IMG/VR virus record: IMGVR_UViG_3300021083_000495
Span: 1-52,698 of that record
Length of the DNA stretch: 52,698 nucleotides
Direction: 5' to 3' (one strand)
DNA from: a virus
The notes below the pieces were generated by a model. That model had not been told where the DNA came from, did not search any database, and was given only the letters and a program-made list of their open reading frames with translations. Both the position numbers and the translations under genes were made by a program. Shown piece after piece: positions 20,611-52,698 of this stretch. Every line of letters starts with the position of its first letter. Within the stretch, counting starts at the first letter, position 1.

Positions 20611-20613
20611 TAA

Positions 20614-21708: not shown

Positions 21709-21730
21709 GAGCGGCTGAGCGCAGGGACGG

Positions 21731-22339: not shown

Positions 22340-22368
22340 AGAGGAGACAGTCCATGCCAACGATTAAA
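22313..22368 (+). repeat. 28-base exact tandem duplication of a translation start region
   Basis: The 28 bases at 22313-22340 are repeated exactly at 22341-22368. Each copy holds GAGGAGA and an ATG followed by CCAACGATTAAA. The second copy starts the metallopeptidase gene (ATG 22354). The first opens a 13-codon frame ending at 22367 and also supplies the last residues of the upstream fusion gene. Confidence 0.9.
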
Positions 22369-22800
22369 GAGTGGACAGAACTGCATGCCGATCTGATGCA
22401 GAGGTTGCATCTCCCGTGCGAACTGAATTTCTCTACTGATGTCAAAGTAGCACAGCACAGATTCGACGACGATGACACCTGTGTGATCACTATCAATCCA
22501 GAAGTGGATTTTAAAGTACCAGTACACCTCATTCTCCACGAAGCTGCCCATCATCGCGCTTATGTCAGGGCGTTTAGACATCTCACGGACAATACTTTCG
22601 TGGACTTATGCTGTTCTGGCTGGACGGGCGGACACTGCGAGCACTGGGCGAAAATTCTCATCGGCATGTACGCCGAAATGGGAATCGCATTGCCGTACAG
22701 CACAAGCTTTATAGCATTTGCAAAGCTGGCGGGCATCGTGCGAAAGAACTATGCAAGGGAGGGTCAATGGAATGGACAGCGGAACAATGGCGCAGGCTAG
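22354..22800 (+). CDS. HExxH zinc metallopeptidase-like protein
   Basis: This 148-residue protein has His62-Glu63-Ala-Ala-His66, the zincin active-site motif, in a hydrophobic helix ('VHLILHEAAHH'). About 28 residues later comes 'GWTGGHCEHWAKILIGMYAEMG', where His94 or His97 could be the third zinc ligand, as in short SprT/WLM-type or phage minigluzincin proteins. The N-terminal part is a small beta sheet. It probably acts as a cytoplasmic protease or peptidase, substrate unknown. The ribosome site GAGGAGA lies in the duplicated 28-base unit. Base composition is GC-rich like its neighbours. Confidence 0.7.
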   Translation: MPTIKEWTELHADLMQRLHLPCELNFSTDVKVAQHRFDDDDTCVITINPEVDFKVPVHLILHEAAHHRAYVRAFRHLTDNTFVDLCCSGWTGGHCEHWAKILIGMYAEMGIALPYSTSFIAFAKLAGIVRKNYAREGQWNGQRNNGAG

Positions 22801-23018
22801 CAGCCTGTTTAGGTTACGGACCTTTGCGGGGACGATTCAAAAAAAATCTGATCCCCATAATGAAGAAACGCGATCAAATCTGCATCAAATGTCTCGCTGA
22901 CGAAGTAGCCGAAGGTCTGGGCGGGGAATACGGTTTGTGGGCGGAGGAAATTTTGATCGCCGCATCCAAAGAAACGTCCATCGAAGTGTACTGTGGTAAG
23001 GGGAAACACAATGCCTGA
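22767..23018 (+). CDS. hypothetical protein
   Basis: I chose ATG 22767, which follows GGGAGGGT (22757-22764) and overlaps the end of the metallopeptidase gene. It gives 83 residues beginning MEWTAEQWRRLAACLGYGP. An N-terminal helical segment is followed by one Cys pair 'CIKC' and another helix with 'AEEILIAASKE'. The upstream extension of this frame reads as shadow sequence. Function unknown. Confidence 0.55.
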   Translation: MEWTAEQWRRLAACLGYGPLRGRFKKNLIPIMKKRDQICIKCLADEVAEGLGGEYGLWAEEILIAASKETSIEVYCGKGKHNA

Positions 23019-23175
23019 AGTCCCGAACGCTTACCAGTGCGACTTTTGCCATAAGATCATGACGCCTATCGAGACGAAGGACACCCGCTGGAATTCGAAG
23101 TTCTGCTCACTTTGTGGCTTCCGATTCTACGATGTTTTCATCGGGGAAACCCGCATAAACACAGATACTTACTGA
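23011..23175 (+). CDS. small zinc-ribbon protein
   Basis: This 54-residue protein starts at ATG 23011, preceded by AAGGGGA; a GTG at 22993 would add 6 residues. It carries two Cys pairs, 'CDFCH' and 'CSLCG', about 25 residues apart, a typical zinc ribbon. Its start overlaps the previous gene. It is the last gene of the GC-rich segment. Function unknown. Confidence 0.55.
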   Translation: MPEVPNAYQCDFCHKIMTPIETKDTRWNSKFCSLCGFRFYDVFIGETRINTDTY

Positions 23176-23257
23176 CTTCTGGATGATCCAGGGCAAGAAA
23201 GTTGATGGTGTCGCTGTCAAAACCTTTCAACTATCCATTTCTAGATTAGAGGTTGAT

Positions 23258-37736: not shown

Positions 37737-39161
37737 ATGCCTAAAAATTTAACTCAAGAAGAATACATTCAAAAAGCAATAACCACTCACAATCACACTT
37801 ATGATTATTCCGCTTTAAAATACAAAAATGCTGTAACTGAAGTAGAAATTATTTGTCCTACCCATGGTTCTTTTTGGCAACTTCCGTATAATCATTTGAA
37901 AGGAAGTGCTTGCTCTAAGTGTGGGAATTTAAAAAAAGCCGCCCCCCATCAGACCACAGTAGAATTTATTGCCGCCTGCAATAAAATCCACAATAATTAT
38001 TACACTTATCTCCCCCATTTTCAGCACATTGGTTATAATGTAAAAATAGAAATTACCTGCCCTGTACATGGAGTTTTCAAACAACGAGCCAATAATCACT
38101 TAGCTGGAAGAGGCTGTCCAAAATGCGGTAGAAATAAAGCTCGAACTATTTTACTAAAAGACTACCCTATTATCCCAACACTTCAACTCACATCCGCTAT
38201 CGCCAAAAAGAAAAATAATGTGTGTTCTCTAGTACCGCAAGAACACACATTCGGCTGTCTTATTCCAGGTAAAAATGAATTTTCTCCTGTTCTAAAAGTT
38301 GAAGAAGTTATCAAAACCTTGGGAGTAGTTTTTGAATCAAATAATCGTCAAGTTATCAAACCTTTGGAGTTAGACATATGGATTCCCGACTACAAACTAG
38401 CTATAGAGTTCAACGGTAAATATTATCATTCACTAGATGGCACAGAACCTCCTCAATTCAAATTTAAGCATAGGGACAAATTTGAGCGTTGCCAAGAAGC
38501 TGGAATTTCGCTACTTCAAATTGATGAACATGAGTGGAACGACCCTGTTATTCAAGAAATCTGGAAATCCGTTATAGCATCGAAACTGGGTAAGCACCGG
38601 CGAGTCTTTGCCCGTTGTACCAAATTTTATCAAATATCTAGGGATGAAGCGGAACAATTTTTAGCGGAAAATCACCTTCAAGGAACGACCCCATCTGCTA
38701 ATCAAGATTGGTGTTATGGACTAAAACTGAATAATGAGTTAGTAGGGGTAATTACTTTTGCTAAACATGAGAAGAAATTTATTAACCTAACTCGTATGGC
38801 ATTTCCTCGTGGGGTTACAGTAGTAGGAGGGGCTCAAAAACTTTTCAAAAACGCATTAAAATATTTACCTACCATACCCATTGTCACTTTTTCAAACAAT
38901 CGCTACAGTGGTGGAGATGTGTATAAACATTTGGAGTTTGTATCTGATAAATTGCTACCCCCCAGCTACCAATGGTATTTTCAAGGAAGAGTATGGAATA
39001 AAAGACAGTTACGCAGGAAGTATTTACCTCAGATTTTGCAGAATGAACTTGGTTTCAATCCACTGGAAACAGAGCATCAAAACATGTATAGAAATGGAGC
39101 TAGGTGTATGTATGACGCGGGATATGAGCGTTGGATTTATCCTCGATCAATCACTGTTTAA
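37737..39161 (+). CDS. Hef-like homing endonuclease with two N-terminal zinc repeats
   Basis: This 474-residue protein starts with two DUF723-like modules: 'YDYSALKYKNA ... IICPTHGSFWQ ... C-x2-C' and 'NYYTYLPHF ... ITCPVHGVFKQ ... C-x2-C'. A PD-(D/E)XK/Vsr-like nuclease domain follows: 'ELDIWIPDYKLAIEFNGKYYH' (in part, about residues 210-230) and 'KFERCQEAGISLLQIDEHEW'. The C-terminal 200 residues ('RDEAEQFLAENHLQG', 'GLKLNNELVGVITFAKH', 'YERWIYP') resemble the acyltransferase-like domain that accompanies such endonucleases. Its ATG immediately follows the T run of the upstream terminator and there is no usual ribosome site, so expression should be low. Confidence 0.8.
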   Translation: MPKNLTQEEYIQKAITTHNHTYDYSALKYKNAVTEVEIICPTHGSFWQLPYNHLKGSACSKCGNLKKAAPHQTTVEFIAACNKIHNNYYTYLPHFQHIGYNVKIEITCPVHGVFKQRANNHLAGRGCPKCGRNKARTILLKDYPIIPTLQLTSAIAKKKNNVCSLVPQEHTFGCLIPGKNEFSPVLKVEEVIKTLGVVFESNNRQVIKPLELDIWIPDYKLAIEFNGKYYHSLDGTEPPQFKFKHRDKFERCQEAGISLLQIDEHEWNDPVIQEIWKSVIASKLGKHRRVFARCTKFYQISRDEAEQFLAENHLQGTTPSANQDWCYGLKLNNELVGVITFAKHEKKFINLTRMAFPRGVTVVGGAQKLFKNALKYLPTIPIVTFSNNRYSGGDVYKHLEFVSDKLLPPSYQWYFQGRVWNKRQLRRKYLPQILQNELGFNPLETEHQNMYRNGARCMYDAGYERWIYPRSITV

Positions 39162-39183
39162 AAAAGATACCACAATGTTGCGT

Positions 39184-40029
39184 TTAGCGCGTCGAGGCTT
39201 GCAACGTCACACTTCTGAGCGCTGACGTGATGAAGCTTTGTCTAAAATTGATACCACAAGTTAAGCCCGATTCGGCTGTTTCCCAGCGCCAATTTTTTTG
39301 GCTCCATTTAACATTTTTTTCGTAAAATTTACTATGGAAGTTCCACAGTTTAACGATAAGCAAAGATTCACCATCGGAAGGAAAAATATTCTTAACGACA
39401 CCGATACCTTTATTTTTGATATGCAAGCGATCCCCAACAGCTATTTGACGAGCTGCGGGGCGTGTCTCATACCAACTTTTGCGAATGTCGATAAGATGAG
39501 CGATCCCCTGTTGACTCCAGCCATAATCTTTCATCCATAAAGGGATTTTCTCGCCTTTGGGTGAGGCTTCTTCTTTCACTTGAAGGTAAATATCCACGTT
39601 GAAGGCGATGAGTGTTTCGAGTCTTTGCGCCACATCCTGCATGGAATAGGGAACCATGCTAGGGGGGATAATGAAGAATTTTGGGTAGGCGTATTGCGCA
39701 CGCCAGCCTAAGGAGTGTCTGAGCAATTTCCCCCAAAGCGATACTTCCCCGTGGATTCCTGAACTGGCATAATTGATGCTGATCAAGTGCTCAAGATTAA
39801 TTCCCGCATACATCCCACAGGTACAATCTTCATCTGGGCATTGATGGAGCGGAGCAAGGTTCACAGCTTCACAACAGGCTTCAAATGCAACTCCAGGTGT
39901 CCACGCGGCGTTATTAAGAGACTTTACACCATCGGCATCCCATTGCCAAGCCCGATATGCCGTAAAGGGCATAATGTAATCAGGCACCTGCTCAACTTTG
40001 GGATGCACCAGTTTGAGTCTGCGTTTCAT
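39184..40029 (-). CDS. conserved hypothetical protein with CTCGMYA motif
   Basis: The 281-residue protein has an N-terminal domain of a widespread phage/actinobacterial type: 'YRAWQWDADGVKSLN', 'W-x-PG-x-AFEACCE', 'HQCPDEDCTCGMYAGINLEHL' (in part) and 'GEVSLWGKLLRHSLGWRAQYAYP'. The C-C-x-C-G-x-Y-A motif could bind metal. The C-terminal half (about 150-280) is different and basic. Function unknown. It is transcribed against the virion genes, directly downstream of the 45-residue gene whose stop abuts its start, and ends 23 bases from the convergent endonuclease gene. Confidence 0.65.
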   Translation of the reverse strand: MKRRLKLVHPKVEQVPDYIMPFTAYRAWQWDADGVKSLNNAAWTPGVAFEACCEAVNLAPLHQCPDEDCTCGMYAGINLEHLISINYASSGIHGEVSLWGKLLRHSLGWRAQYAYPKFFIIPPSMVPYSMQDVAQRLETLIAFNVDIYLQVKEEASPKGEKIPLWMKDYGWSQQGIAHLIDIRKSWYETRPAARQIAVGDRLHIKNKGIGVVKNIFPSDGESLLIVKLWNFHSKFYEKNVKWSQKNWRWETAESGLTCGINFRQSFITSALRSVTLQASTR

Positions 40030-40167
40030 TTAGGCAGGAACCTCAATTGGTTCCGGTTCAGGCACATACAAAGGGTTTGGCTGTTCAATTTCACGCCCGG
40101 GCATAGCACAGGGCAATTCCAACGGCTCGACAAACAAGGTTTCCTGCGGTACTCCGATATAGCACAT
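40030..40167 (-). CDS. small hypothetical protein (45 aa)
   Basis: I chose the ATG at 40167 because GGGAGGAA lies 6 bases upstream; the longer upstream frame has no ribosome site. The product is Pro/Glu-rich with 'PLELPCAMPG' and a 'PLYVPEPEPIEVPA' tail. It forms an operon with the gene at 39184-40029, with no bases between its stop and that gene's start. Function unknown. Confidence 0.5.
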   Translation of the reverse strand: MCYIGVPQETLFVEPLELPCAMPGREIEQPNPLYVPEPEPIEVPA

Positions 40168-40185
40168 AAATTGTTCCTCCCTACT

Positions 40186-40214
40186 ATAATACACTAAAAA
40201 CACCAAAACACCAA
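40186..40214 (-). promoter_or_regulatory. candidate promoter of the 45-aa/281-aa operon
   Basis: On the minus strand: TTGGTG, a 17-base spacer, TATTAT. The -10 is good (5 of 6), the -35 weak (3 of 6). It lies about 20 bases upstream of the ATG at 40167. Confidence 0.4.
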
Positions 40215-40356
40215 TTTGGAATTTATGGGTGCTACCTCCTCCCGGTTCGGTAACACCCATATTTCCCCGTACTTTCAACTGGAGCACTCCCCAATGAAAA
40301 ACCTTTACAGTTTCCCATTGACTACTACATCATGAAGTGCTTCAGTCGAAAACCTT

Positions 40357-41481
40357 TTAGAACGCCATATCAATCAGGCGTCCCGCAGCCTCATCCATCT
40401 TCAACCGAGTATCAGCAAACGGCTGATCCTGAGAGAGACGAGTCAAACCCTGTGCCATACCCCAAATGGAGTTCGGCTTGCCGTCAGTGCTTTCGTTAGC
40501 AATCGCCAGCGTCTGGGCGGCTTCTAACTGCTTGCGGGATACCGGCGCACCAGCCTTCTTCAAATTAGCAAAGATGGTGTCGATTACCTGCTCTTGATCC
40601 GCAGCAATGATGGTAGATTTGGCGGTGCGAATCTTGGCTTCGATATCGCTCACCGATTCATTGGCATAGCGGTTGAGTTCGATATGCAGCCGGTCAAGCA
40701 TAACATTCATGCGGTCCTTCACCTTGCCAACATGTCGCAAGGCGATTTCGCTAACATCCTTTGCCCCCCACACGATATGATTCGAACATATGAACCTGTA
40801 TAGGAAAGTGGTGATGCGCAGTTTTGAGGCACCCACTTCAGAATTTTCAACGAAGAATCCGCGTCCCAAACCTTCGGGATTTCCCGGTTCGTTGATGCGA
40901 TTGTTGTTGTTCACGAGAAATACGAACATATCGTGATCGGAGACATAGATGGTTTTTTCCCGCGTCCGACCTGTAGCAGCCGCACTCATGCCGCTATGCT
41001 CGAAAGCAACCGGGGTGTTCCATCCGTACTGCGGATAATCCAGCATCCGACGTAGAAGGTCATGGTTCCAAATGCGGGTGTATTTTTCCGAAGTCAACGC
41101 CCGTCCCACCAAGCCCCCATTAGCGTGAACCAAAAGATTCACGCGCTCATCGGGGTCGATATAGCGGGTTTTCAGACCATGGTTAATATTTTGGACGGCG
41201 AGAGTAGCGGGTAGTTTACGAAGATAGGAAGCCGGAGCTTCGACACGGGCGGCGAGTTGACCGAAAGCCCAATTGGTCAAAGTAGCGGGTTCGTTGCCCT
41301 TACCTACGAGTTGAACTTCACTATTGTATGCTTCTACGCGCAGAGTGGCGGGATCGACATTAGCTTTTTCCCGGCTGGAATTGGCGTAGGCTAGAGATTG
41401 TTCGTAGGCAGTTTGAATATCGTTGAATTTTTCGTCGTCTGGGCGGGTGCTCCACTGCTGACTAGCTTTGAAAAGTTCCAT
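40357..41481 (-). CDS. DUF932 family protein
   Basis: This 374-residue protein fits the DUF932 phage/plasmid-like family (TIGR03299 type): 'LTNWAFGQLAARVEAPASYLRKLP', in part, 'VNLLVHANGG-x-x-GRALTSEKYTRIWNHDLL', 'YVSDHDMFVFLVN', 'GRGFFVENSEVGASKLRITTFLYRFICSNHIVWG' (in part). The family is common in plasmids and large phages and its biochemistry is not established. The gene is GC-richer than its neighbours and runs against the virion genes, with its own promoter at 41554-41583, so it is a good moron candidate. The ribosome site is GAGGA, 5 bases upstream. Confidence 0.8.
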   Translation of the reverse strand: MELFKASQQWSTRPDDEKFNDIQTAYEQSLAYANSSREKANVDPATLRVEAYNSEVQLVGKGNEPATLTNWAFGQLAARVEAPASYLRKLPATLAVQNINHGLKTRYIDPDERVNLLVHANGGLVGRALTSEKYTRIWNHDLLRRMLDYPQYGWNTPVAFEHSGMSAAATGRTREKTIYVSDHDMFVFLVNNNNRINEPGNPEGLGRGFFVENSEVGASKLRITTFLYRFICSNHIVWGAKDVSEIALRHVGKVKDRMNVMLDRLHIELNRYANESVSDIEAKIRTAKSTIIAADQEQVIDTIFANLKKAGAPVSRKQLEAAQTLAIANESTDGKPNSIWGMAQGLTRLSQDQPFADTRLKMDEAAGRLIDMAF

Positions 41482-41628: not shown

Positions 41629-44600
41629 ATGAAATCCCCATTGTTCAAAAAACAAGCTCTGGATGCTCTGCTGGAAGTTATCAATGACCCAGAGTACGCC
41701 ACGCATCAACATCATAGCGACCCGGATTTTACCACTCAGACGGGCAAAGATTACGCCGGACGCGGTTCCACAGAAGTAGAAAATGGAGTGAGTGTAACGA
41801 TTCCACCAGAGGCAATCACCGCAGCAATTGAACCCGACCAAATCGATACCGATCCCGATGTAGAATTTCATCGCCAATATGATTTCATGCAAATGTTGAA
41901 AAAAACCTTTCGAGGCTGGACGGGTGGAAATCCTTTTTATCATTTTCAAATGCCAATGAATTCTGTTCGTTTATATTCTGATGGTTGGAAAATTCAGCGA
42001 TTCGATAAAGATACTGGGGTTGAAGGCAAGACCTTAGAAGAATTGAAAGCATATTTGTCAAAAGCAGATTGGGTTCGAAATCTTAAACCCGCGGCTCCTC
42101 CTTATCTAGAAAGAACTATTGAGGGGCAAATACCCAATAAAAAATTGACAGCTGCTACCGTGAGTTTTATAGGACCCCACAGCGATATTGCTCCTACGAA
42201 GACACACAACAAAAATTACATCTGGGTATACCACCCTAGCTACGGGTTTTATTTCGCTGAGGGTATGACAGCTGATCACATAAAATTGTTTAAAGGGGTT
42301 CACGCGTCCACAAGTTTTCCAGGGGCTAAAATTCCCAATAATTTATACGATGATTGTAATCGAGGGTATGCTTGGGTAAAGAAATCCACGAAATACATAT
42401 CTTTAGACACTTCTACCGCTATTGAACCAGAATGGGATTTTATCCCGCAAGCTGTAGTGAAGGGATTTAAGAAATATTTTCCTGGTTATACTTTTGATGA
42501 GGATTTTTCAAAGCTAACTTCAAAGAAAGCGGCAACCACCGTTCGTTTTATCGGTCCGCATTCTGATGTACCTATCGCTGAAAGCAGGGCTAGATATTAC
42601 TGCTGGTTATACCACCCAGATTACGGATTTTACTATGGAGAGGGTACTGAAAGTGATCATTGGAGATTTATAAAGGGGGAATATGAGGGGGCGATGATCC
42701 CCAGAATATCATATGATAAGTCAATTCGTGGGTACGCTGAAGTCAATAGAATTAAAAAAACCGTAAAGTTGGAGATTAGTATTGCTTCGTCTCAGTGGGA
42801 AAATACAGTCCCACCTATCGCCGTTAAAGTATTTAAAAAAAATCTTCCTGGGTTTGAAGTTAGCGTAAAAAAATCCTTACTAGGTAGCATGGATTCTCCA
42901 ATAAATGAAGAAGTGCAGGAACATACCTTTTTTAAGGAAAGCGATCCTTTAAAGCCCCAAGGGTATAATTTTTTTAAGGAAAGTGACCCTGAGTTTGAAA
43001 TGACGGCCGCTGGAGTTCACCGAACAGAAGAAGACCTTAACCAGGTATTAGAAAAATTTGGGTACACTTATAGTGGTAAATATGAAAATGGTTTGCACCG
43101 CTGGAGCCGAGGAAAAAATGAATATATTATATTTAGCCCACCAAAAAATTCTATTACTCATTTTTTAAACTCTGAGGCTGACTTAGTGTGTAGCGCCAAT
43201 GATTTGGAAGATAAGATAGCTCTTTATCATAATTTTGAACGACCTACTCCTCAATCAATTCCTATAACAGCGTCTAAATCCTGTGTTGCGTGTGAATGTG
43301 GTGGTTGTATTGAGCATGAAGATATACCGCAGTGTAATGGTTGTGATCGAGCCAAAAAAGATTGTATATGTGAGGACTGTACCTGCCCAGAAAACCCACG
43401 AGCTGTTACAGCTGATGGAAGTATAGCTTCCAAATCCGCGGCCAAAAGTAAGCAAGAAAGATACATGTTAGATACTTTCTATCCGGGGCGTAGAGTTAAA
43501 TACTGCGGAAGTGCGAAATGTTATGATGAGTTGATAAGGGGCTTGCCGCTTATAGGTATAGTGGTGGAAAATGGCTACTTTGATAGAAAGCTCAGGGAAT
43601 GGCGTGTCCCAGTGACATGGAACGGATACGAAGAGTCCCAGCGTAAGCTTCGTCGCATCGCCCCATTTATGAGTAATTTAATACCTTTGAACGACCAAGG
43701 AGAATTATTCTCGGATGATAAAACAGCCGCTATGGGTAAAGCTGAGAAACATTTTTTAAGTTTTAAACCTGGGGATAGGGTTGTATTTTATAAACCCTAT
43801 ATGGGTAAGCATGAGGGAACAGTAGTAGATAACGGCGACCATTGGTATTATAATTCAAAATTTAAAAATGGAGTTGTTCCAGTTCTTTGGGATTATCAAA
43901 CTGATAAAGGGATTGTAGCTGTACCAACTTCTGATAAGTTAATTCATTTGAATGACCAAGGAGAATTATTTGCTTCAGAAAAAACATCAGCGATAGGCAA
44001 GGATGAAAAATATATCAGAGATAACTTCAAAGTAGGGGGTAGAGTTCGATATCACAAATCAAAATCAGAGGGTACAATTGAATCCATAGGACCATACAAC
44101 CCAAGAAACAGATCAGCTGTAATTGGAATTAGATGGGATGGTGGTAATAGGATATCCTATGTCCGGGCCGCGGATTTGATTCCTCTGAATGCCCAAGGAG
44201 AATTATTTTCCCAAGAGAAAACGGCGTCCAGTCCACTAGAAGCCGAAGCCTTTATTGAATGGGGCGGGGTATACGATCATCGACATTTGGAGTTGGACGA
44301 GTATAAAGGTACTTGGGAATGGACAGATTATGACGCTTCTGATGCTTTAAATGTCGGTAGGCAGGTAGGTGAATGCAAATCTTTAGAAGAAGCCAAAGAA
44401 AAGCTGGAACGAGTGGTTTTCAATATTGGAGAACCTCGTACATACATCCATTATAGCGATGATGAGCATATCAAGAAACAGGATTATTTGGCACCAGAAG
44501 AAAAAGGATTTCTCCGTGATACGGGAGTAGGTACTGATATTAAGCCCGATTTCTCTAAAGATTATTCTCCTTATTCTCCTTATACTCGGGATAAAGATTT

Positions 44601-47600
44601 CCTGAATTCAATGGGCATCAAAGCCAGAAAGAAAGCTCAAGAAATTTTATCCCCGCAGAGTATGAAAAACTCCCCCATTCATCAATATATGCGTTCTTTA
44701 GGTCAATGGTATCATGTTTCCGGTAGTTTATATAGAAATGTTAAACACCCAGAAATGGTGCTTTCTGTATTTGATGACGGTTGGACAATTAGACAGTGGG
44801 GAGAAAATATAGATAGCGGGGAAGACATCAATACATTGAAAACTTATTTGGCAAGCCACGACTTGGATACAGATACTTCAATGAAACCATCACCCAATCG
44901 CCATGTTGATGTTTCACTGGGTCCGAACACAATTGAAGGGGAGATAGTTCCTGAAAGAAAAAGATTAAACGCAGCAGCCAATAAAAAATTATTCCATGTA
45001 ACCCATACCGATAAGGTTCCGTCCATACATGAGAAGGGAATCATACCCTTACAAACATCCAACTGGGTTAAAGAAGAAGCAAAAGAGCGTTATGGTAATG
45101 GGGAGATATTTGCTTTCTCTGACCCTTCAGATGCTGTGCGTTGGGCAGGTAAGATGGATTGGGATTTCAATCAATCCATGGGCACAGGTAAGATTAGTAT
45201 CGTCGCCTTTACCCCAGGGGGGGAGAAGTGGAAAACAGATACCGCGGATCCTTTAAGTCAAGCTTCATCCAAAGGTAAGTGGTTAAAAGCTACAGGCTGG
45301 GTCAAGCCCGACCAAATCACATCTGTTACCGCCGTGACCCCGGAAATAATAAAGAGCGTAATAGGAGGTCAGATTCCTAAGTTTGCTGAGAAAGTGTCAG
45401 AAATTAAAACTAGTAAAACAGCTCAAGCACAAAAAACTTCTACCGCGTTGGAGGTTACTCTTTTGTTTAAACGCTGGAGAGTAAAGTCCAGTAAATTGTG
45501 GAATGGTGACGTGCTGGGAAGGGAAAAAAATACCCAACAGCTGGCTGTAAAATTGATTCCTTATATTAAAAAATATTCCGGTATGTTACGCGATATAGTT
45601 CATTCAAATTTAGTCTTGTTTAACGGCGTCCCAATGTTTGATAAAACTTTACAAGCTCTTGAGACTGTACAGGGTCGTTTGGATTGGTTAGAAACGGTCA
45701 AAAAAATAGTCAAAATGGACATTGTATGGGCTGTGCGTTCCGCTGCTGCTCATTTAGATTTGGCTTTTAATTCAGCCTTGTACGCTTATAAAGATGCAGA
45801 TGATTTTTTATCCAAAAATTCATCCACTAAATCTTACGGTATAGGTACTCCCATTGGGGGCACTCCAAACGAATTTATGGCAACTGATAATCCCAATGAG
45901 GATGAAGAAGAAAATGACCAAATGAATATGACTGGGGGGTTAAGTATTACGGCTTCCTGGGATGTATTGGCTACTAATTACTTCGATATGTTTCAACAGG
46001 TTCTTGCTTTACCTGAGTCCAGAGGATTGGAATCTACCATTAAAAAAGAAATATCTTGGGCAAAGCAAACCCTGAAGAAAGCTGATCGTATTGTATGGTA
46101 TTTGCGCTGGTATCGGCTACATTTGGAGTCCAGGTTAGCGGGAGGTAGCCTGCGGAGTGCGGCGGCAAAAGCTATTTTCAAGAATGATTTGGGTATGTAT
46201 AGCAGAAAAAATCCAATCACTAAAGAGGATATACCCACTAGCATCACTAGCATGACGGACCTGCAAAACAATTTAAGCCATTTCCTGGGACTGCAAGATC
46301 ACGCTATTCAGAATAAAGTCTGGTATTTTGAAACTCCGAAACAGTTAGTTGATGATTTTAAGAAGCTGGAAAATGATATTAGGGAACGAGTGGAATCTGA
46401 AAGACGAACTATTTCAGAAGAAGACAATGATCCTGAAGATGAAATTTTTATTGGATTTCCTGACGGTTGGGCTTGGTGGTTATTAGATAGGGCGTACTGC
46501 TCGGAAGAAGCTAAAGCTATGGGTCACTGCGGTAACTCTCCTCGTAAGAATACCGGGGATAGAATTTTAAGTTTAAGACAACCGGTAATGAAAGGGGGCA
46601 ATCAATACTGGTCACCTCACTGCACCTTTATTATCCGCTCGGGTAAATTCTTGGGGGAAATGAAAGGACGTAACAATGATAAACCTGTGGTCAGATATCA
46701 TCCTTACATTATAGCTTTGCTAAAAGACCCTCGTATCTTCGGCATTATGGGCGGCGGATATTTGCCAAAGCATAATTTTCATTGGGACGATTTATCGTTT
46801 AAAGAACAAGATGAAATTAAACAAGCAAACCCAAATTTTGGAAATCCAGATAAAGTCTGGGAAGCTGTAGGCAAAGGGGACAAAGCTGTAGCTACGATTG
46901 CTACAGCCTTAGGATTGGCCGAAGATGATGGGGATCCGTCATCATTTCATAGGGATTTGGACGCTTTCATTGTCAACAGCTGGGTTGATGTAGGGCAGAT
47001 GCTCAATGCAATCGGAGATCAAGAATCGAGAAATGCTTACGATCTTTTACAATCCACTACAGATAATCCTAACGCTTTTGATGACAACACGGCACCAGAA
47101 GAGCGAATCAATATTTTAATTGATAATGGTTTGAGTCCCCGTGCATTAAAAATAATGGCAGAAAAAATTAAAGCGGAAAACCCTAATGAGCTGAATCGTT
47201 TCATCGAAATCCAAAAACGACTCAACCCAAATTTTGAATTTAATTTATTAGATGATTCCGTACTTAGGGATATGTTGGATTATGATCGTCGAATAGGGGG
47301 AGTCATTTGGCCATTGGTGGACATGGCTTTTAACATGGCTGGAGATAAAGTGCTCAATGAACGCCGTATAAGTGACCTAGAATACGCCATTACAGATCCT
47401 TACGAACAAGATAATGATCAAGCGAACACTGTTTTACGTTACGGAGAAAATGCGGGTCAGAATTTTTCTTGGGATGCCAGTCCTGTTTATGAACTTATTT
47501 CCTATGATGAAGCTGTGAAATTGGTTTCAGATCCAGACAGAGAAAATAAAGATTTATCCAACGGGCAGATAAAAATTTGGATGGGTGGTGATTATAATGA

Positions 47601-49311
47601 TGGTTTTAGTGATGATGAGTTTAGTGAGTTCTATGGTAACGCCACCGGAGCCTTGGAAAGATTACTCATAAAAGGGTCACCACAAGAAAAGGATCCAAAT
47701 CAAACGCAAATTACATTCAAGGAGCGAACTCCCAGGTCAGAAAAAACAGATTTGAAGAAATATCAAAGAACCACGGGTAGTAGGAAAAAATCCTTTGTAG
47801 ACATTCATGAAACTCCTACTATGTTGCCGCCCCGCGATGATATGAGACGGCACTTAGACACTGATGAGCAAGATGAAGCGATGCACGGAGTGCGGGATGG
47901 AATTATTGATGAACCCAAATTACCTAAGCCGAAGCAGATTGATCCCCGTATTAAAGGCGCTGCTTTACCGAAGGTATATCGATTCTCTAGCGCTGGAAAA
48001 ACTCCTCGTTCCAAAGAAGAAATAATCAATGAAATTGATTATTTGTACAGCATCGCAGATCATCCAGAAATACCCCGAGAAGAATCTCAGCGTCTACTGG
48101 GAGAAATCAAAAAACTGAATCAAGAATTTGAAGCCAATGGTTACACGCATGACCATGTCAGAGATGATCGACCTCTTACTCCGGAGTTTTTAGATATGGT
48201 TGATGATGTCAAGGGTAATGTAACCCATGAAAAAACGATAAATCCCCATGACAAAAAATGGCTCAATTCTTTTGGGGTAGAAGGCAGTAAACAAGCCGCT
48301 TTTAATCGCAAAGAAGCTCATTGGATTAGAAAATCTTCTGGTTCTAAAATTGAGGAAACTCTTAAAAAAGCGGTTAAAATCTTAGGGGAAAATGGAATCC
48401 CAACATTAGTAGCGGGGGGTTATGCGGTACAAGAATACGGATATCCTCGTTATACTAAAGATATAGATATTATTGTACCTGATAGAATTCAATCCATACA
48501 ACTACTTATTGGAAACGGATTTCATAAAGCCAATACTCCAAACACAGTTATAGATAATGAAACAAATGAAGAAGTTGATTTATTACTGGCTGGGGATCGT
48601 ATGAATATAGGTCCTGTTCCTTTTCCCGTCCCGTCAGAAATAACGCTTGTACCGAAATTAATTACATTAGAAGAATTGATTGATTTAAAATTGGGTAGTT
48701 ACGCTTCTAATCCATGGGGCAGAACCAAAGATTTGGCCGATGTAACAGAATTAATTCAGCGTAATAGTATACCCAAAGAATTTATGGCAAAAGGGTTGAT
48801 GAATAAAGCATGGAATAATTTATGGGATATGATGCACCAAACTCCAGATAATCCTATAGAGCCAAAAGAATCTTGTTTTAAAGTTTTGTCTTCTGTCGTA
48901 GAAATAGAAAATAAAATAGCAGATGACGAAGATCAATTAGACTCAGAAGGCGAATACTTCCTTGAACAAGTAAGTGATGCTAAAGAAGAAGCCAAGCGCC
49001 ATTTTATGGAAGAAGATTATATTCAGCAACAAGCAGCCGAGGATGGCCGAACCATGGAGGAAATGTGGGCTGAGATAGGGGAAGAGTTTACCGCTAATTT
49101 CTACGATTATCCCTATAATCCGCCAAAAGAGAAACAAAAACCCATAGCCACACCTGAATTTTCTACTGGAGATAAAGAACATCTACACGGCATGGGAGTG
49201 CTAGGAAGTGGATGTCCTTTATGTAAGAGCGCTAACTTGAAGAAAGTTGCGGGCATGGATTTGACTGAATGTACAGATTGTAAAGGTGTTTATTCAATAC
49301 CCACATCATAA
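41629..49311 (+). CDS. giant modular protein with ART-like, PcfJ-like and nucleotidyltransferase-like segments
   Basis: I chose ATG 41629, giving about 2560 residues; an upstream TTG would add 11. Modules by rough residue: 101-165 (A1), 177-289 and 303-411 (B1, B2, both opening 'FIGPHSD'), 551-588 Cys cluster, three barrel-like repeats at 607-865 each ending 'LI-x-LN-x-QGELF', 1025-1110 (A2, like A1 and again followed by 'TIEG-x-I'), 1120-1240 ADP-ribosyltransferase-like ('LFHVTHTDKVPSIHEKGIIP', 'IFAFSDPSDAVRWAG'), 1608-1725 PcfJ-like, 2238-2385 nucleotidyltransferase-like ('VAGGYAVQEYG', Asp2278/Asp2280, Asp2317), and a C-terminal zinc ribbon (Cys2529, 2532, 2548, 2551). Ala/Ser linkers separate modules. 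A processed internal-head or injected polyprotein is inferred. Confidence 0.75.
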   Translation: MKSPLFKKQALDALLEVINDPEYATHQHHSDPDFTTQTGKDYAGRGSTEVENGVSVTIPPEAITAAIEPDQIDTDPDVEFHRQYDFMQMLKKTFRGWTGGNPFYHFQMPMNSVRLYSDGWKIQRFDKDTGVEGKTLEELKAYLSKADWVRNLKPAAPPYLERTIEGQIPNKKLTAATVSFIGPHSDIAPTKTHNKNYIWVYHPSYGFYFAEGMTADHIKLFKGVHASTSFPGAKIPNNLYDDCNRGYAWVKKSTKYISLDTSTAIEPEWDFIPQAVVKGFKKYFPGYTFDEDFSKLTSKKAATTVRFIGPHSDVPIAESRARYYCWLYHPDYGFYYGEGTESDHWRFIKGEYEGAMIPRISYDKSIRGYAEVNRIKKTVKLEISIASSQWENTVPPIAVKVFKKNLPGFEVSVKKSLLGSMDSPINEEVQEHTFFKESDPLKPQGYNFFKESDPEFEMTAAGVHRTEEDLNQVLEKFGYTYSGKYENGLHRWSRGKNEYIIFSPPKNSITHFLNSEADLVCSANDLEDKIALYHNFERPTPQSIPITASKSCVACECGGCIEHEDIPQCNGCDRAKKDCICEDCTCPENPRAVTADGSIASKSAAKSKQERYMLDTFYPGRRVKYCGSAKCYDELIRGLPLIGIVVENGYFDRKLREWRVPVTWNGYEESQRKLRRIAPFMSNLIPLNDQGELFSDDKTAAMGKAEKHFLSFKPGDRVVFYKPYMGKHEGTVVDNGDHWYYNSKFKNGVVPVLWDYQTDKGIVAVPTSDKLIHLNDQGELFASEKTSAIGKDEKYIRDNFKVGGRVRYHKSKSEGTIESIGPYNPRNRSAVIGIRWDGGNRISYVRAADLIPLNAQGELFSQEKTASSPLEAEAFIEWGGVYDHRHLELDEYKGTWEWTDYDASDALNVGRQVGECKSLEEAKEKLERVVFNIGEPRTYIHYSDDEHIKKQDYLAPEEKGFLRDTGVGTDIKPDFSKDYSPYSPYTRDKDFLNSMGIKARKKAQEILSPQSMKNSPIHQYMRSLGQWYHVSGSLYRNVKHPEMVLSVFDDGWTIRQWGENIDSGEDINTLKTYLASHDLDTDTSMKPSPNRHVDVSLGPNTIEGEIVPERKRLNAAANKKLFHVTHTDKVPSIHEKGIIPLQTSNWVKEEAKERYGNGEIFAFSDPSDAVRWAGKMDWDFNQSMGTGKISIVAFTPGGEKWKTDTADPLSQASSKGKWLKATGWVKPDQITSVTAVTPEIIKSVIGGQIPKFAEKVSEIKTSKTAQAQKTSTALEVTLLFKRWRVKSSKLWNGDVLGREKNTQQLAVKLIPYIKKYSGMLRDIVHSNLVLFNGVPMFDKTLQALETVQGRLDWLETVKKIVKMDIVWAVRSAAAHLDLAFNSALYAYKDADDFLSKNSSTKSYGIGTPIGGTPNEFMATDNPNEDEEENDQMNMTGGLSITASWDVLATNYFDMFQQVLALPESRGLESTIKKEISWAKQTLKKADRIVWYLRWYRLHLESRLAGGSLRSAAAKAIFKNDLGMYSRKNPITKEDIPTSITSMTDLQNNLSHFLGLQDHAIQNKVWYFETPKQLVDDFKKLENDIRERVESERRTISEEDNDPEDEIFIGFPDGWAWWLLDRAYCSEEAKAMGHCGNSPRKNTGDRILSLRQPVMKGGNQYWSPHCTFIIRSGKFLGEMKGRNNDKPVVRYHPYIIALLKDPRIFGIMGGGYLPKHNFHWDDLSFKEQDEIKQANPNFGNPDKVWEAVGKGDKAVATIATALGLAEDDGDPSSFHRDLDAFIVNSWVDVGQMLNAIGDQESRNAYDLLQSTTDNPNAFDDNTAPEERINILIDNGLSPRALKIMAEKIKAENPNELNRFIEIQKRLNPNFEFNLLDDSVLRDMLDYDRRIGGVIWPLVDMAFNMAGDKVLNERRISDLEYAITDPYEQDNDQANTVLRYGENAGQNFSWDASPVYELISYDEAVKLVSDPDRENKDLSNGQIKIWMGGDYNDGFSDDEFSEFYGNATGALERLLIKGSPQEKDPNQTQITFKERTPRSEKTDLKKYQRTTGSRKKSFVDIHETPTMLPPRDDMRRHLDTDEQDEAMHGVRDGIIDEPKLPKPKQIDPRIKGAALPKVYRFSSAGKTPRSKEEIINEIDYLYSIADHPEIPREESQRLLGEIKKLNQEFEANGYTHDHVRDDRPLTPEFLDMVDDVKGNVTHEKTINPHDKKWLNSFGVEGSKQAAFNRKEAHWIRKSSGSKIEETLKKAVKILGENGIPTLVAGGYAVQEYGYPRYTKDIDIIVPDRIQSIQLLIGNGFHKANTPNTVIDNETNEEVDLLLAGDRMNIGPVPFPVPSEITLVPKLITLEELIDLKLGSYASNPWGRTKDLADVTELIQRNSIPKEFMAKGLMNKAWNNLWDMMHQTPDNPIEPKESCFKVLSSVVEIENKIADDEDQLDSEGEYFLEQVSDAKEEAKRHFMEEDYIQQQAAEDGRTMEEMWAEIGEEFTANFYDYPYNPPKEKQKPIATPEFSTGDKEHLHGMGVLGSGCPLCKSANLKKVAGMDLTECTDCKGVYSIPTS

Positions 49312-49421
49312 GTAAGGACTCAGCATTGGTATAAATATGTCATTTATTTAAAGATGCTTGTGCTATTTTTTTAAGCCTCTGTTAAATACTTGAGCCAATT
49401 GTGTGGACAAAACAAAATAGG

Positions 49422-50315
49422 ATGCCTTTTAAAAAATTTGCAAATGCGGCTGTTACAGAGCCCGTTCTAAAACCCGGTGATTGGGAAAAAATGTACGGCA
49501 GCCGAGCATTTCGTGGATGCCACATTGACGGGGATCATCCGTTCTGCAAAACCGCGTCCGCGCAAAAAATTGCAAAGTCCTCAAATTACTTGCTTAGCCA
49601 TTGCACGATCATGGCATCAGTGATGACTGAAGAAGAACCATTCGACTATTTCATCAAGCCCGAGACAAGTCATTTGGTGAATAATAACGATGACGCGTGG
49701 ACGAACGAAGTACTGAAACTTTCTGCACCATCTTTCGTAGGCGCGTTCAACTTCGTTGAGCATTTCCAGAATTCGAAATATGCAAAAGGGCATATCCTCA
49801 GTCAAGTCTTGCGTAAGATCAATATCGCGGGCGGCATCTGGGTTTATTTCTGTGACATCCTCGTAGCGACTGATGTCACTCACGAGAAGCTGGTGAGCGA
49901 CATTCGAGACGGCAACGTGCGTTATCTCTCCATGGGATGTGTTACAGACTTAGTTATTTGTTCTTACTGCGGTGCGCATGTAACTGATGCTAGTACCTAC
50001 TGTTCCCATTTACAATATCAAAAAGGGACCTTTCTGGCCGACGATAACGGGATCCCTCGTAGAATAGCGGAACTTTGCGGGCATAAAACGATGCCTAATG
50101 GCGGAGTAAAATTTGTAGAAGCCAGTTGGGTAGCAACTCCAGCTTTTCCTGGCGCGGTGAAACGAAATATAGTCGCTGAATCGTGGGAAGGACCAAAAAC
50201 CCCATATACACAGACTGCGGCTAAGACAGCTGCGTTTGCAAAAGCAGCTTCTGACCGGTCGGACATCTGTGAATTTTTGCTTGAAAATGACATCAAAGGG
50301 GGGTTACGGCGCTAG
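49422..50315 (+). CDS. putative prohead maturation protease
   Basis: I chose ATG 49422; a GTG at 49401 would add 7 residues. The 297-residue protein has 'GAFNFVEHFQ', 'WVYFCDILVATDVTHEKLVSDIRDG' (in part), 'VRYLSMGCVTD' and 'VEASWVATPAFPGAVKRN', a pattern I associate with prohead proteases of large myoviruses (the herpesvirus-assemblin-like fold). Candidate catalytic residues are His154 and Ser170. Four Cys ('CSYCG', 'YCSH', 'LCGH') form a probable metal site inserted in the domain. A scaffold-like gene follows directly, as expected for a protease. The family call is moderate; a zinc-binding head protein is the alternative. Confidence 0.55.
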   Translation: MPFKKFANAAVTEPVLKPGDWEKMYGSRAFRGCHIDGDHPFCKTASAQKIAKSSNYLLSHCTIMASVMTEEEPFDYFIKPETSHLVNNNDDAWTNEVLKLSAPSFVGAFNFVEHFQNSKYAKGHILSQVLRKINIAGGIWVYFCDILVATDVTHEKLVSDIRDGNVRYLSMGCVTDLVICSYCGAHVTDASTYCSHLQYQKGTFLADDNGIPRRIAELCGHKTMPNGGVKFVEASWVATPAFPGAVKRNIVAESWEGPKTPYTQTAAKTAAFAKAASDRSDICEFLLENDIKGGLRR

Positions 50316-50360: not shown

Positions 50361-51503
50361 ATGGCAAACCTAAAAACAGTACAAGCAGCACTAGAACGAA
50401 AACAAGCAGATCTGGATATGATGGATGATCAGCTTTTGGAAATGGATTCCAACCTTCCTCCGGATATGTCTTCATCGCCTGAATTTGACCTACTCGCAGA
50501 GAAACGCGAAGAACTTGAAGAAGAAATTCATAATATGCGCGAGGGCGTGCAGCTTATAGGTGAATGGGAAAAGTTTAAAGGTGGTCCCTGGTCTGAGGAT
50601 ATAAAACAACTTTTAAGTGAAATTGATATTGAAATTACTGATATTGCCGGAGGAGAAGTAGCCCCTGGTTCTGCATTACCTGGCATGGAAGGTGATTTAG
50701 GCGGCGGTGCAGATATGGGTATGATGCCCCCACCAAGTCCTGTAGCGCCTGAATCTGCCCCTCCTGTATCAGAACCCGTACACCCGGCAGCACCAACTAC
50801 ACCCCCTGAAGCAGGAGCCCCCCCATTGGAACCCCCTATGGCGGCTTCTAAAAACTCAACTAGTAAGAAAATTAACTATCAATCTCTTGAAGAGAGGGGC
50901 AATTTTGCCCATTTGAACTCAAAAAAGGAAGGCAATTATATGGCAACTCCGACTCAAGCCACAGCTTCAGTAAATCAAAAGCTGGCAGATACAAAAATTA
51001 GACGCGAGGCGATTAGGAAAGAAGCACAACAGCGTGTTGCCGCAGCGTGGACAATCGCAAAAACTATGCTCCCAACCGCGCCCGCAGAAGTGCAAAAGAG
51101 CGCAGCTGCTACCCTACTTCAAAATACTACTCCGGTATTGAATGCGATGCTTCGTCAAACCGCAAAGAATTCTCATTATACCAAGCAAGCCGAAGAAGTT
51201 CACAAGAAAGAAATGAATGATCTTCTCCCACAATCATCCGAACTAACTTCAGAACAACGAGCTGTAGCTGCCGAACTCAAGGGTGAACCCAAGAATGCCG
51301 GTGGTCGCCGTATAACTGATAAAGTTGCTGATGATCGTAAAGAATCTGGTCCTCAACCCGAAACTTATAATGACGGTAGAGGCTGCGGCGGCGGTAAGCA
51401 TACTGAGCCTAAGGAAATGGACGCTGGTTCAACTTCATCTCAAACCGAACCTCAGCATCGTTCAGCAGGGTCAGAGTGTGTAGTGCGATATTCTCAGGAG
51501 TAG
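50361..51503 (+). CDS. scaffold-like protein, 3' end replaced at the junction
   Basis: The N-terminal 100 residues form a coiled coil ('ALERKQADLDMMDDQLLEM', 'EKREELEEEIHNM'). Residues about 100-165 are Gly/Pro/Ala linker. From residue 194 a second helical part begins ('KLADTKIRREAIRKEAQQRVAAAW'). Inside the gene, ATG 50940 in the same frame is preceded by AAGGAAGG at 7 bases, an excellent ribosome site, so a shorter C-terminal product may be made. After about residue 358 (around 51430) the sequence is lpxB read antisense, so the natural C-terminus is missing. Order after a protease gene supports a capsid scaffold or core protein. Confidence 0.6.
   Translation: MANLKTVQAALERKQADLDMMDDQLLEMDSNLPPDMSSSPEFDLLAEKREELEEEIHNMREGVQLIGEWEKFKGGPWSEDIKQLLSEIDIEITDIAGGEVAPGSALPGMEGDLGGGADMGMMPPPSPVAPESAPPVSEPVHPAAPTTPPEAGAPPLEPPMAASKNSTSKKINYQSLEERGNFAHLNSKKEGNYMATPTQATASVNQKLADTKIRREAIRKEAQQRVAAAWTIAKTMLPTAPAEVQKSAAATLLQNTTPVLNAMLRQTAKNSHYTKQAEEVHKKEMNDLLPQSSELTSEQRAVAAELKGEPKNAGGRRITDKVADDRKESGPQPETYNDGRGCGGGKHTEPKEMDAGSTSSQTEPQHRSAGSECVVRYSQE
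50926..50942 (+). promoter_or_regulatory. internal in-frame translation start
   Basis: AGGAAGG followed after 7 bases by ATG 50940 lies in frame inside the scaffold-like gene. The encoded start MATPTQATASVNQK looks like a natural N-terminus. In lambda the scaffold Nu3 is nested in frame within the protease gene C, a comparable arrangement. Confidence 0.5.
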
Positions 51504-52698
51504 CGTCGTACTGAATCAACTCCGGCACAATCATCTTCTGAGCGAGAATATTCGGTAATCCGATCATTTTTATTCGCTTCTTAAGGCCCAGAAGCCGCGC
51601 CTCCAACTCCATTAGTTTAGAGAATCGGTAGAGTATCACCATCGGTGTCTCAAACGCCGCAGCTTCCAGCGTTGCCGTGCCGGAACATGTTAGAAGCACA
51701 TCACTGTGCGCCATTACCTCGGTGGTTGCCCCTTTAACGATTACGATCGGCGGCAAAGCGCGATCGGCGGCCGAGCGAAGTTTATCGGATCGTTGCCCCG
51801 CGGTTTCACGATCTCGCAGGGTCGACTCCGGCACGACTAGCCCTTCCACGGTAACCAACATGCGTTGCGTCTTGCCGGTCAGTGCGTTTGCAGTACGCGT
51901 CACGGGCCGTATGATACGAGTTTCCGCCTCGCGAACAAACTCCAACCAGGCGCTGCCCAGTCGCTCGCGTAGGTCATCATCCTGGCTGAGATAAGCCGCG
52001 ATCCGTTCGCGAGAAATGCCCGGCGCTACACCGATGACAAACTGCGCATCCTTTACGGACCGATAGATGATCCTTGCTGCATCCAACAGTACTGGGAGCA
52101 GATACTCGATTTCGTGCAATCTGCTGCCAGGCAGAAGGCCGATAATTGGTCTGCTTGCATCAAGCCCAAAGAGTTCCGCGAATTCTCTTCGACTCACACC
52201 CGTTAATGTGCGTTCTATAACCGGATGACCAACATTTACGGCATTGGCGCCAAGTCCACGAAAGCGCTCCGCTGACCATTCAAAGGGAACAACGAGCAGG
52301 TCAGTAATACGTGCGAGGTTAGCGCCCTTGGTGCCGGTTCGTCGCCAGGCTGCACCGGGTGGAAAGTACCAGCATACTTTCAGCCCCAATCGTTTGGCTT
52401 CACGAGCCACTCTACGGTTGAATGCGCCAAAATCGATGAGTACAACGACATCCGGTCGACGCTCTCTAAGCGCCTTGATAGCTACAGGAAGGACTTTAAA
52501 GCGGAGTAGTGGGTATTTGGCAATCGCCTGGGAAATACTGATTACGCCCCATCCGGCGCTATCCACAAGTACGTCGACGCCGGCATCACGCATACACTCG
52601 GAGCCCAGACCCCACAGCACGACGCCTGGCTGCAGCAGATGTATCTCCCTTGCCAGTGCGCCGCCTATCAGGTCGCCAGAAGTCTCGCCAGAAATAAT
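51409..52698 (-). CDS. lpxB: lipid-A-disaccharide synthase, truncated at both ends
   Basis: This is a GT19 glycosyltransferase that joins UDP-2,3-diacylglucosamine and lipid X into the lipid A disaccharide at the inner membrane of Gram-negative bacteria. The 5' end runs off the window (the first visible residues are 'IISGETSGDLIGGALARE', matching the family N-terminus). Other signatures: 'PDVVVLIDFGAFN', 'CWYFPPGAAWR', 'IGLLPGSRLHEIEYLLP', 'LLTCSGTATLEAA' and 'GLPNILAQKMIVPELIQ'. About 70 residues between 'GVAPGISRER' and 'VIVKGATTEVM' are an unusual insertion. At the 3' end homology stops after 'LLNDAEVRFEM' (about 51437); the last residues to the stop at 51409 come from phage sequence. Composition is clearly GC-richer than the phage part. 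Confidence 0.85.
   Translation of the reverse strand: MISGETSGDLIGGALAREIHLLQPGVVLWGLGSECMRDAGVDVLVDSAGWGVISISQAIAKYPLLRFKVLPVAIKALRERRPDVVVLIDFGAFNRRVAREAKRLGLKVCWYFPPGAAWRRTGTKGANLARITDLLVVPFEWSAERFRGLGANAVNVGHPVIERTLTGVSRREFAELFGLDASRPIIGLLPGSRLHEIEYLLPVLLDAARIIYRSVKDAQFVIGVAPGISRERIAAYLSQDDDLRERLGSAWLEFVREAETRIIRPVTRTANALTGKTQRMLVTVEGLVVPESTLRDRETAGQRSDKLRSAADRALPPIVIVKGATTEVMAHSDVLLTCSGTATLEAAAFETPMVILYRFSKLMELEARLLGLKKRIKMIGLPNILAQKMIVPELIQYDATPENIALHTLTLLNDAEVRFEMKLNQRPFP

What the first reader, a model, noticed from the sequence alone, without database searches (positions are those of the whole stretch)
41629..49311. Giant modular protein as a possible processed virion polyprotein carrying enzyme domains
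One gene encodes about 2560 residues with duplicated modules (A1/A2, B1/B2, three barrel-like repeats), Cys clusters, and segments resembling three different enzyme families. It lies directly upstream of the putative prohead protease and scaffold. Phages such as T4 package internal proteins, including ADP-ribosyltransferases, and phiKZ-like phages process inner-body proteins with the prohead protease. A single polyprotein delivering several effectors would be an unusual version of this.
Basis: partly seen in the sequence, partly recalled or inferred. Interest (0 to 1): 0.78.

Follow-up and report, generated by a model that had tools for sequence, protein, structure and literature searches.

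The report
Modular phage cargo protein beside protease

Summary
One intact ORF (41629-49311, 2560 aa) has real internal repeats and lies directly upstream of a head maturation protease. No Pfam or PHROG family matches it. Structure and sequence comparison point to an ADP-ribosyltransferase (ART) fold closest to KptA/Tpt1, an AbiEii-like nucleotidyltransferase (weaker evidence), and a PcfJ-like domain. The phage is a jumbo-myophage relative of Tunturiibacter phage Tunturi_5. In 75 of 80 protease loci the gene upstream shares short core segments; the 33 nonredundant complete versions run from 131 to 2567 aa and carry different cargo; the ART module is also a stand-alone ORF elsewhere. This is the known kind "polyvalent proteins" (Iyer 2017), in a fixed-core, exchangeable-cargo form beside the head protease. 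Beyond that, the tripeptide K-[TSA]-A is enriched in this gene family, in the flanks but not the core of the protease, in the scaffold-like protein, and stands at the N-terminus of all 67 capsid ORFs examined; tail-type neighbours show little. I propose that it marks cleavage or packaging sites. Packaging and cleavage are unproven, I found no virion proteomics for this lineage, and Tunturi_5 gives mixed support.

The parts
41629..49311 (+). giant modular protein, 2560 aa
   Evidence: frame kept in near-identical contig L002
41629..41883 (+). N-terminal core segment (residues 1-85)
   Evidence: HMM hit in 56 of 80 protease loci; Tunturi_5 gp330 matches it, E 1.5e-5
41926..42132 (+). A1 repeat (residues 100-168)
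   Evidence: self-match to A2, 25%, E 5.7e-7
42142..42495 (+). B1 module (172-289)
   Evidence: 42% to B2; beyond this phage found in three contigs
42523..42861 (+). B2 module (299-411)
43024..43245 (+). D module (466-539)
   Evidence: HMM hit in 16 of 80 loci
43282..43386 (+). Cys cluster (552-586), putative metal site
   Evidence: ten Cys
   Evidence: 33-41% identity among repeats; similar units in another late gene of the same phage (L011 20229-20912)
44722..44946 (+). A2 repeat (1032-1106)
44965..45390 (+). ART-fold module (1113-1254)
   Evidence: AlphaFold pLDDT 79; Foldseek to Tpt1 2.6e-5, probability 1.00; VIA Z 9.4; stand-alone ORF in other contigs
45820..45909 (+). KSYGxGxPxGGT core motif (1398-1427)
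   Evidence: 48 of 80 loci
45925..46884 (+). PcfJ-like module with MGHCGN and LGEMKG motifs (1433-1752)
   Evidence: pLDDT 85; Salicola phage SCTP-2 gp31, 37%; PcfJ-like by Foldseek in BFVD, 2.1e-5; weak GNAT resemblance
47782..47919 (+). middle core segment with VDIHETPTMLPPRDDMR (2052-2097)
   Evidence: 67 of 80 loci; weak in an LR745208 topoisomerase-HAD protein, domain E 0.0038 in a small set
48331..48852 (+). nucleotidyltransferase-like module; GG 2263-2264, D2278, D2280, D2317
48922..49293 (+). C-terminal core segment with zinc-ribbon-like CPLC...CTDC (2432-2555)
   Evidence: 72 of 80 loci
49401..50315 (+). head maturation protease, 304 aa
   Evidence: phrog_18299 1.3e-12; 58.6% to Tunturi_5 gp331; K[TSA]A in both flanks
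50361..51465 (+). scaffold-like gene (role inferred), cut short by the probably chimeric end of the contig (754 aa in L002)

Best explanation
The gene encodes a polyvalent, effector-carrying internal head protein of a Tunturi_5-type jumbo myophage. A conserved core (N-terminal segment, KSYG motif, PPRDDMR segment, zinc-ribbon-like C-terminus) brings the protein to the prohead by an unknown contact. Between the core pieces each lineage inserts its own cargo modules; here these are duplicated A and B modules, three barrel-like repeats, an ART, a PcfJ-like domain and an AbiEii-like nucleotidyltransferase. During head maturation the adjacent protease probably cuts at K-[TSA]-A linkers between modules, freeing them to be injected with the DNA and to modify host targets early in infection. 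Shown: modularity, core conservation, locus, ART fold (predicted), motif enrichment. Inferred: packaging, cleavage, injection, enzyme activity, host targets.
For: In 75 of 80 protease loci a gene upstream of the protease bears a core segment, and 33 nonredundant complete versions run from 131 to 2567 aa. The ART module is a short stand-alone ORF at 10 of 28 loci and sits in other large ORFs at 7. ART fold. Nucleotidyltransferase: whole-sequence E 0.0031 to an AbiEii-family toxin, catalytic-type residues kept. A sister protein, Tunturi_5 gp321, carries ART-PolyVal 6e-48, 2H, GNAT and SprT, with five of its six K[TSA]A sites outside these. K[TSA]A against local shuffles: this family 108 vs 42, protease 68 vs 18, scaffold-like 195 vs 97; tube 0 vs 1.8, decoration 1 vs 4.2. 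KTA occurs 61 times in the family, its five permutations 3-16 times. In 80 proteases the motif is in residues 1-75 in 74, in 76-255 in 2, after 255 in 55. All 67 capsid ORFs have K[TS]A[AG]GR near the N-terminus, and LR745208 has KTAAGR. Ranked by the motif alone, protease and giant are 1st and 2nd among the window's ORFs; in Tunturi_5 gp205, gp328, gp348, gp321, gp225 and the protease are 1st, 2nd, 3rd, 6th, 8th and 10th of 325.
Against: No virion proteomics. In the giant itself K[TSA]A is only 6 against 2.3 expected (10 of 500 shuffles reach it). Tunturi_5 is mixed: its gp330 has no K[TSA]A and its scaffold-like gp332 only two, and two of gp225's five sites repeat a phrase at the end of ART copies, so they are in a domain, as is probably gp321's sixth; ranks 4, 5, 7 and 9 are ORFs I did not identify; genome-wide KTA (38) is hardly commoner than AKT or ATK (35 each). 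The ejection-like protein shows a weak excess (84 vs 59) and its window copy is not among the 12 ORFs listed. The scaffold family has AKT (61) more often than KTA (48). Eleven of 107 family sites lie inside modules. The sheath has a KTA excess, mostly one shared site (13 vs 4.2). Bacillus phage G's capsid protein lacks the motif. Module borders were chosen by me with the linkers in view. Tunturi_5 has only a 169-aa version at this locus.
Confidence: 0.52

Rival explanations
1. The same polyvalent head protein, but packaged and injected whole (as phage N4 virion RNA polymerase is); the K[TSA]A linkers are flexible spacers or bind scaffold or capsid, not cleavage sites.
For: N4 virion RNAP is packaged unprocessed although it carries a peptidase domain (PMC5512222 passages); motif excess in the giant is modest; the scaffold family has AKT more often than KTA.
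Against: The motif sits in the protease flanks and is nearly absent from its core (2 of 80), as self-processing would predict; in this gene family the order K-T-A matters.
Confidence: 0.3
2. A late, non-packaged infection protein (made in the cell, never in the virion) that happens to be encoded beside the protease.
For: The locus also tolerates homing-endonuclease-like and minus-strand genes; at the 10 stand-alone ART loci no neighbour matched my reference head/tail set except a short sheath match at L160.
Against: A core-bearing gene stays upstream of the protease in 75 of 80 loci and shares its linker with capsid, scaffold-like and protease proteins.
Confidence: 0.12
3. Structural: an assembly-core or head-vertex protein whose modules are scaffolding folds, the enzyme resemblances being fold-only.
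For: Short versions (131-384 aa) leave little room for cargo, so the core may have a role of its own; barrel-like and Cys segments look non-enzymatic.
Against: The 50 Foldseek rows shown for the ART model are ART-superfamily entries, and so are the VIA rows shown except CC0527 (three entries of unassigned function); nucleotidyltransferase residues are kept.
Confidence: 0.06

Closest known systems
Polyvalent proteins of phages and conjugative elements (Iyer et al. 2017, PMC5512222; passages read)
   Same: Several effector-type domains (ART, Pol-beta nucleotidyltransferase, GNAT and others) in one polypeptide, often encoded with late genes, predicted to be packaged and injected; assemblin-like (head-protease-type) peptidases are reported at the C-termini of some.
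   Different: Here the protease is a separate neighbouring gene, a fixed core surrounds exchangeable cargo at one locus, and no Pfam PolyVal model matches the giant itself.
Phage P1 Dar system: DarB 250 kDa, DarA, DdrB (PMC9024508 and PMC5512222, passages read)
   Same: Very large proteins carried in the head; DdrB reported, DarA believed, to be proteolytically processed.
   Different: Separate genes rather than one chain.
Internal head proteins of Salmonella phage SPN3US (PMC10052503, passages read)
   Same: Internal head proteins processed by the phage's prohead protease.
   Different: 13 of 14 reported sites remove N-terminal propeptides; the word polyprotein does not occur in its main text.
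T4 Alt (as described in PMC5512222 passages)
   Same: Packaged, injected ADP-ribosyltransferase.
Tunturiibacter phage Tunturi_5 gp321, gp225, gp205 (PP885688)
   Same: Same lineage; large multi-domain proteins (gp321, gp225 with ART-PolyVal; gp205 annotated ADP-ribosyltransferase toxin, with a GNAT match); gp321 and gp205 have K[TSA]A sites outside domains that Pfam recognises.
   Different: Encoded at other places in that genome; the head-protease locus has only the 169-aa gp330. gp225's sites are partly inside its ART copies.

Membership tests
Polyvalent proteins | two or more domains, including effector-type catalytic ones, in one polypeptide | tested here: met
   ART fold, nucleotidyltransferase motif, PcfJ-like domain
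Polyvalent proteins | encoded among phage late/packaging genes | tested here: met
   sheath, tube-like, protease, scaffold-like, capsid order
Polyvalent proteins | domain families catalogued as PolyVal | tested here: inconclusive
   no Pfam PolyVal hit in the giant; ART-PolyVal hits in sister proteins gp321 and gp225
Polyvalent proteins | packaged and transferred with the DNA | not testable with these tools
   needs virion proteomics
ART superfamily | ART fold | tested here: met
   predicted model: Foldseek 2.6e-5 to Tpt1; VIA Z 9.4, rmsd 3.7, 92 aligned
ART superfamily | catalytic residues and NAD use | not tested
   an invariant His and Arg-Tyr are seen in 20 sequences; roles not assigned
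Pol-beta / AbiEii-type nucleotidyltransferases | GG, DxD and third Asp | tested here: met
   G2263 G2264, D2278, D2280, D2317; PDB 8an4 whole-sequence E 0.0031, best stretch residues 7-50 alone 0.084, the second co-linear stretch not significant; Pfam below cut-off
Pol-beta / AbiEii-type nucleotidyltransferases | fold and activity | not tested
PcfJ-like proteins | similar fold or sequence | tested here: met
   BFVD PcfJ-like, E 2.1e-5, probability 1.00, but TM-score 0.26 by query; no Pfam hit up to E 10
GNAT acetyltransferases (for the PcfJ-like module) | GNAT fold | tested here: inconclusive
   best Foldseek E 0.033; VIA Z up to 6.2, the 50 rows shown being acetyltransferases or complexes of them
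Head proteins processed by the head protease | cleavage at a shared motif | tested here: inconclusive
   K[TSA]A enrichment; no cleavage data
Head maturation protease (neighbour) | family match and conserved His/Ser | tested here: met
   phrog_18299 1.3e-12; H67 and S177 unchanged wherever aligned among 81 sequences; their catalytic role is recalled

The most novel reading that the evidence does not exclude
A head-loaded cargo polyprotein: a fixed packaging core into which jumbo phages slot different host-acting enzyme cassettes, each joined by the same K-[TS]-A(-A) spacer that the head maturation protease cuts, so that one gene delivers a set of separate effectors in fixed ratio. The same spacer would help to identify other internal cargo proteins in these phages from sequence alone.
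Probability: 0.4. Interest if true: 0.78.

Novelty: new variant of a known kind. Interest (0 to 1): 0.6.

Why it matters
If right, one motif links capsid maturation to effector delivery and helps to list what a jumbo phage injects from sequence alone, with an isolate (Tunturi_5) on which to test it. The variable cargo slot is also a place to look for new anti-defence or host-takeover enzymes; the ART family found here (28 loci, near-duplicates included) and the PcfJ-like module have no function assigned in the searches made here.

Tried and rejected
Pfam and PHROGs list nothing for the whole giant; Pfam scans of ten segments gave only matches below cut-off, and NCBIfam nothing for four module segments. 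No match to the giant was found in Tunturi_5, LR745208, phage G or Phrappuccino. The nucleotidyltransferase gave no viral relative beyond the same phage in the close-relative scan, the B module only three further contigs. The ART family gave no relative in genome contigs (0 of 20 stretches) and no match in named phages. A fibre or tail protein was considered and rejected: gene order is that of the head, no tail family matches, and modules are exchanged individually. An assembly artefact was rejected for the giant (near-identical contigs agree) but is likely for the window's last 1.2 kb. The motif-versus-border test is only supportive because I chose the borders. The 80 protease loci are the best 80 of 160 relatives; they include near-duplicate contigs and two of the window's own phage (L004, L011). 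Some short 'complete' versions may be pieces of a gene split by a frameshift or insertion.

Full report
What is there. Window 41629-49311 is one open frame of 2560 aa. The window is a virus record. Near-identical contigs carry the gene or parts of it; between window and L002 it has 11 substitutions and only in-frame gaps.

Which phage. The head protease (58.6%) and the capsid protein read from L002 (71%) are closest to Tunturiibacter phage Tunturi_5, a 309-kb myophage, then to the 485-kb uncultured phage LR745208; the capsid protein also matches Bacillus phage G at 33%. Gene order matches Tunturi_5: sheath, a small gene, a protein annotated DNA ejection protein, a structural protein that I call tube, this locus, protease, scaffold-like, a small protein that I call decoration (annotated tail fibre protein in Tunturi_5), capsid protein. 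The tube, scaffold and decoration labels are mine, by position. In Tunturi_5 the locus holds the 169-aa gp330, which matches the giant's N-terminal core (E 1.5e-5).

A fixed core with variable cargo. A scan with the protease alignment gave 160 relatives, of which the best 80 loci were kept, two of them the window's own phage. In 75 of 80 a gene upstream of the protease carries at least one core segment; L028, L029, L087, L088 and L089 do not. Core HMMs hit: N-terminus 56, KSYG 48, PPRDDMR segment 67, C-terminus 72 of 80. Cargo HMMs hit: D 16, ART 8, B 5, PcfJ-like 1, C 1 of 80. Of 59 complete ORFs with the middle core segment 33 are nonredundant, 131 to 2567 aa. The HMMs were built iteratively from these same ORFs. 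Other versions carry GNAT domains (L058, L083) or a below-cut-off PARP match (L085). In LR745208 a gene a few ORFs upstream of the protease fuses topoisomerase IB and HAD domains and has a weak PPRDDLR match. So lineages exchange cargo in a conserved frame.

What the modules are. The ART-like module (20 sequences, pLDDT 79) matches Tpt1/KptA best (Foldseek 2.6e-5, probability 1.00; VIA Z 9.4, rmsd 3.7, 92 aligned) and other ART-superfamily members below; three VIA rows are CC0527, of unassigned function. Of 28 loci with this module, one is the same phage, 8 are core genes beside a protease, 10 are short stand-alone ORFs, 7 are other large ORFs, and 2 I could not assign; near-duplicates are included. 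The nucleotidyltransferase segment keeps GG, DxD and a third Asp and matches an AbiEii-family toxin with whole-sequence E 0.0031, though its best stretch alone has 0.084 and the second co-linear stretch is not significant; Pfam scores are below cut-off. The PcfJ-like module (39 sequences, pLDDT 85) is shared with Salicola phage SCTP-2 gp31 and found at 45 viral loci, one of them the same phage. It matches PcfJ-like phage models (2.1e-5) and, weakly, acetyltransferases (best Foldseek E 0.033, VIA Z 6.2, which may be only a common arrangement). Activities are not shown.

The linker. K-[TSA]-A recurs between modules. Against whole-protein shuffles in nonredundant sets: this family 108 vs 38, protease 68 vs 13, scaffold-like 195 vs 78, ejection-like 84 vs 56, sheath 17 vs 13, tube 0 vs 2.7, decoration 1 vs 4.9. 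Shuffling within 20-residue stretches gives a similar picture, except that KTA alone is in excess in the sheath, 13 vs 4.2, mostly at one shared site. In the family KTA occurs 61 times and its permutations 3 to 16 times; in the scaffold family AKT (61) exceeds KTA (48). In 33 complete genes 11 of 107 sites lie inside modules, which hold 21% of residues, and 45 of 107 lie within 15 residues of a module end, a zone of 21%; the borders were mine, so this is supportive only. In 80 proteases the motif is in the first 75 residues of 74, in residues 76-255 of 2, and beyond 255 in 55, as expected of a protease that trims itself. All 67 capsid ORFs have K[TS]A[AG]GR in their first 80 residues. These last two counts include related and duplicate loci. 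Ranking by the motif alone puts the protease first and the giant second among the window's ORFs.

Tunturi_5 as a test. Of 325 ORFs the ranking puts gp205 (annotated ADP-ribosyltransferase toxin), gp328 (ejection) and gp348 (hypothetical) at 1 to 3, gp321 at 6, gp225 at 8 and the protease at 10; ranks 4, 5, 7 and 9 I did not identify. gp321 carries ART-PolyVal, 2H, GNAT and SprT domains and five of its six sites lie outside them; the sixth, and two of gp225's five, repeat a phrase at the end of ART copies. gp330 has no site and the scaffold-like gp332 two; KTA is hardly commoner than AKT or ATK genome-wide (38, 35, 35). The giant's own excess is 6 vs 2.3, and phage G's capsid protein lacks the motif. 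So the test is favourable but mixed.

Mechanism. I think the core brings the protein into the prohead, the protease frees modules at these linkers, and they enter the cell with the DNA. My judgement: polyvalent, effector-type protein about 0.85; packaging about 0.75; linker cleavage about 0.45.

Known or new. Polyvalent proteins were described in 2017 (PMC5512222), including ones predicted to be packaged and some with C-terminal assemblin-like peptidases (passages); the jumbo-phage overview PMC7824862 also mentions them (passages). Processing of internal head proteins by a head protease is known in SPN3US (PMC10052503, passages), and a 250-kDa packaged protein in P1 (PMC9024508, passages). Among the rows listed by four literature searches (7, 12 of 67, 3 and 4 papers, titles and abstract starts) none joins polyvalent proteins to a linker shared with a head protease; only the held open-access library was searched. 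The Tunturi paper (PMC11924767, passages) has no occurrence of 'mass spectrometry' in its main text. I file this as a new variant of a known kind.

Noticed in passing
window 51466-52698: The match to L002 and L004 ends at 51465 in both; the lpxB-like minus-strand ORF at the contig end is probably a chimeric join, which also truncates the scaffold-like gene (754 aa in L002).
   Followed up: partly
window 37737-41481: A homing-endonuclease-like gene (phrog_559) and two minus-strand genes, one DUF932-like (phrog_1362), sit between tube and the giant gene; several relatives (e.g. L014, L016, L019) also have minus-strand ORFs there.
   Followed up: no
L011 20229-20912 and L014 15994-18375: A second late gene downstream of the capsid protein carries arrays of the giant's barrel-like C unit; in L011 with KTAA-type linkers between units.
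   Followed up: partly
L181 709-3270 (Tunturi_5 gp205) and 19410-23198 (gp225): Two more large multi-domain proteins brought up by the K[TSA]A ranking; gp225 lies beside the portal gene and carries ART-PolyVal and a nucleoside deoxyribosyltransferase-like domain.
   Followed up: partly
L007 14202-15728: In LR745208 a topoisomerase IB plus HAD fusion a few ORFs from the head protease has a PPRDDLR core-like motif near its end.
   Followed up: partly
L111 5446-8711, L096 3986-7404: Stand-alone PcfJ-like genes of about 500-600 aa, two side by side, in other phage contigs.
   Followed up: no
giant residues 988-997, 2208-2217, 2515-2524: A phrase like DKxFLxSMGI recurs three times, possibly a short binding motif.
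   Followed up: no
giant residues 434 and 448; relatives: A repeated FFKESDP phrase in the giant; an FFKxSxP-type phrase occurs in 12 of 33 nonredundant complete versions; possible binding motif.
   Followed up: partly
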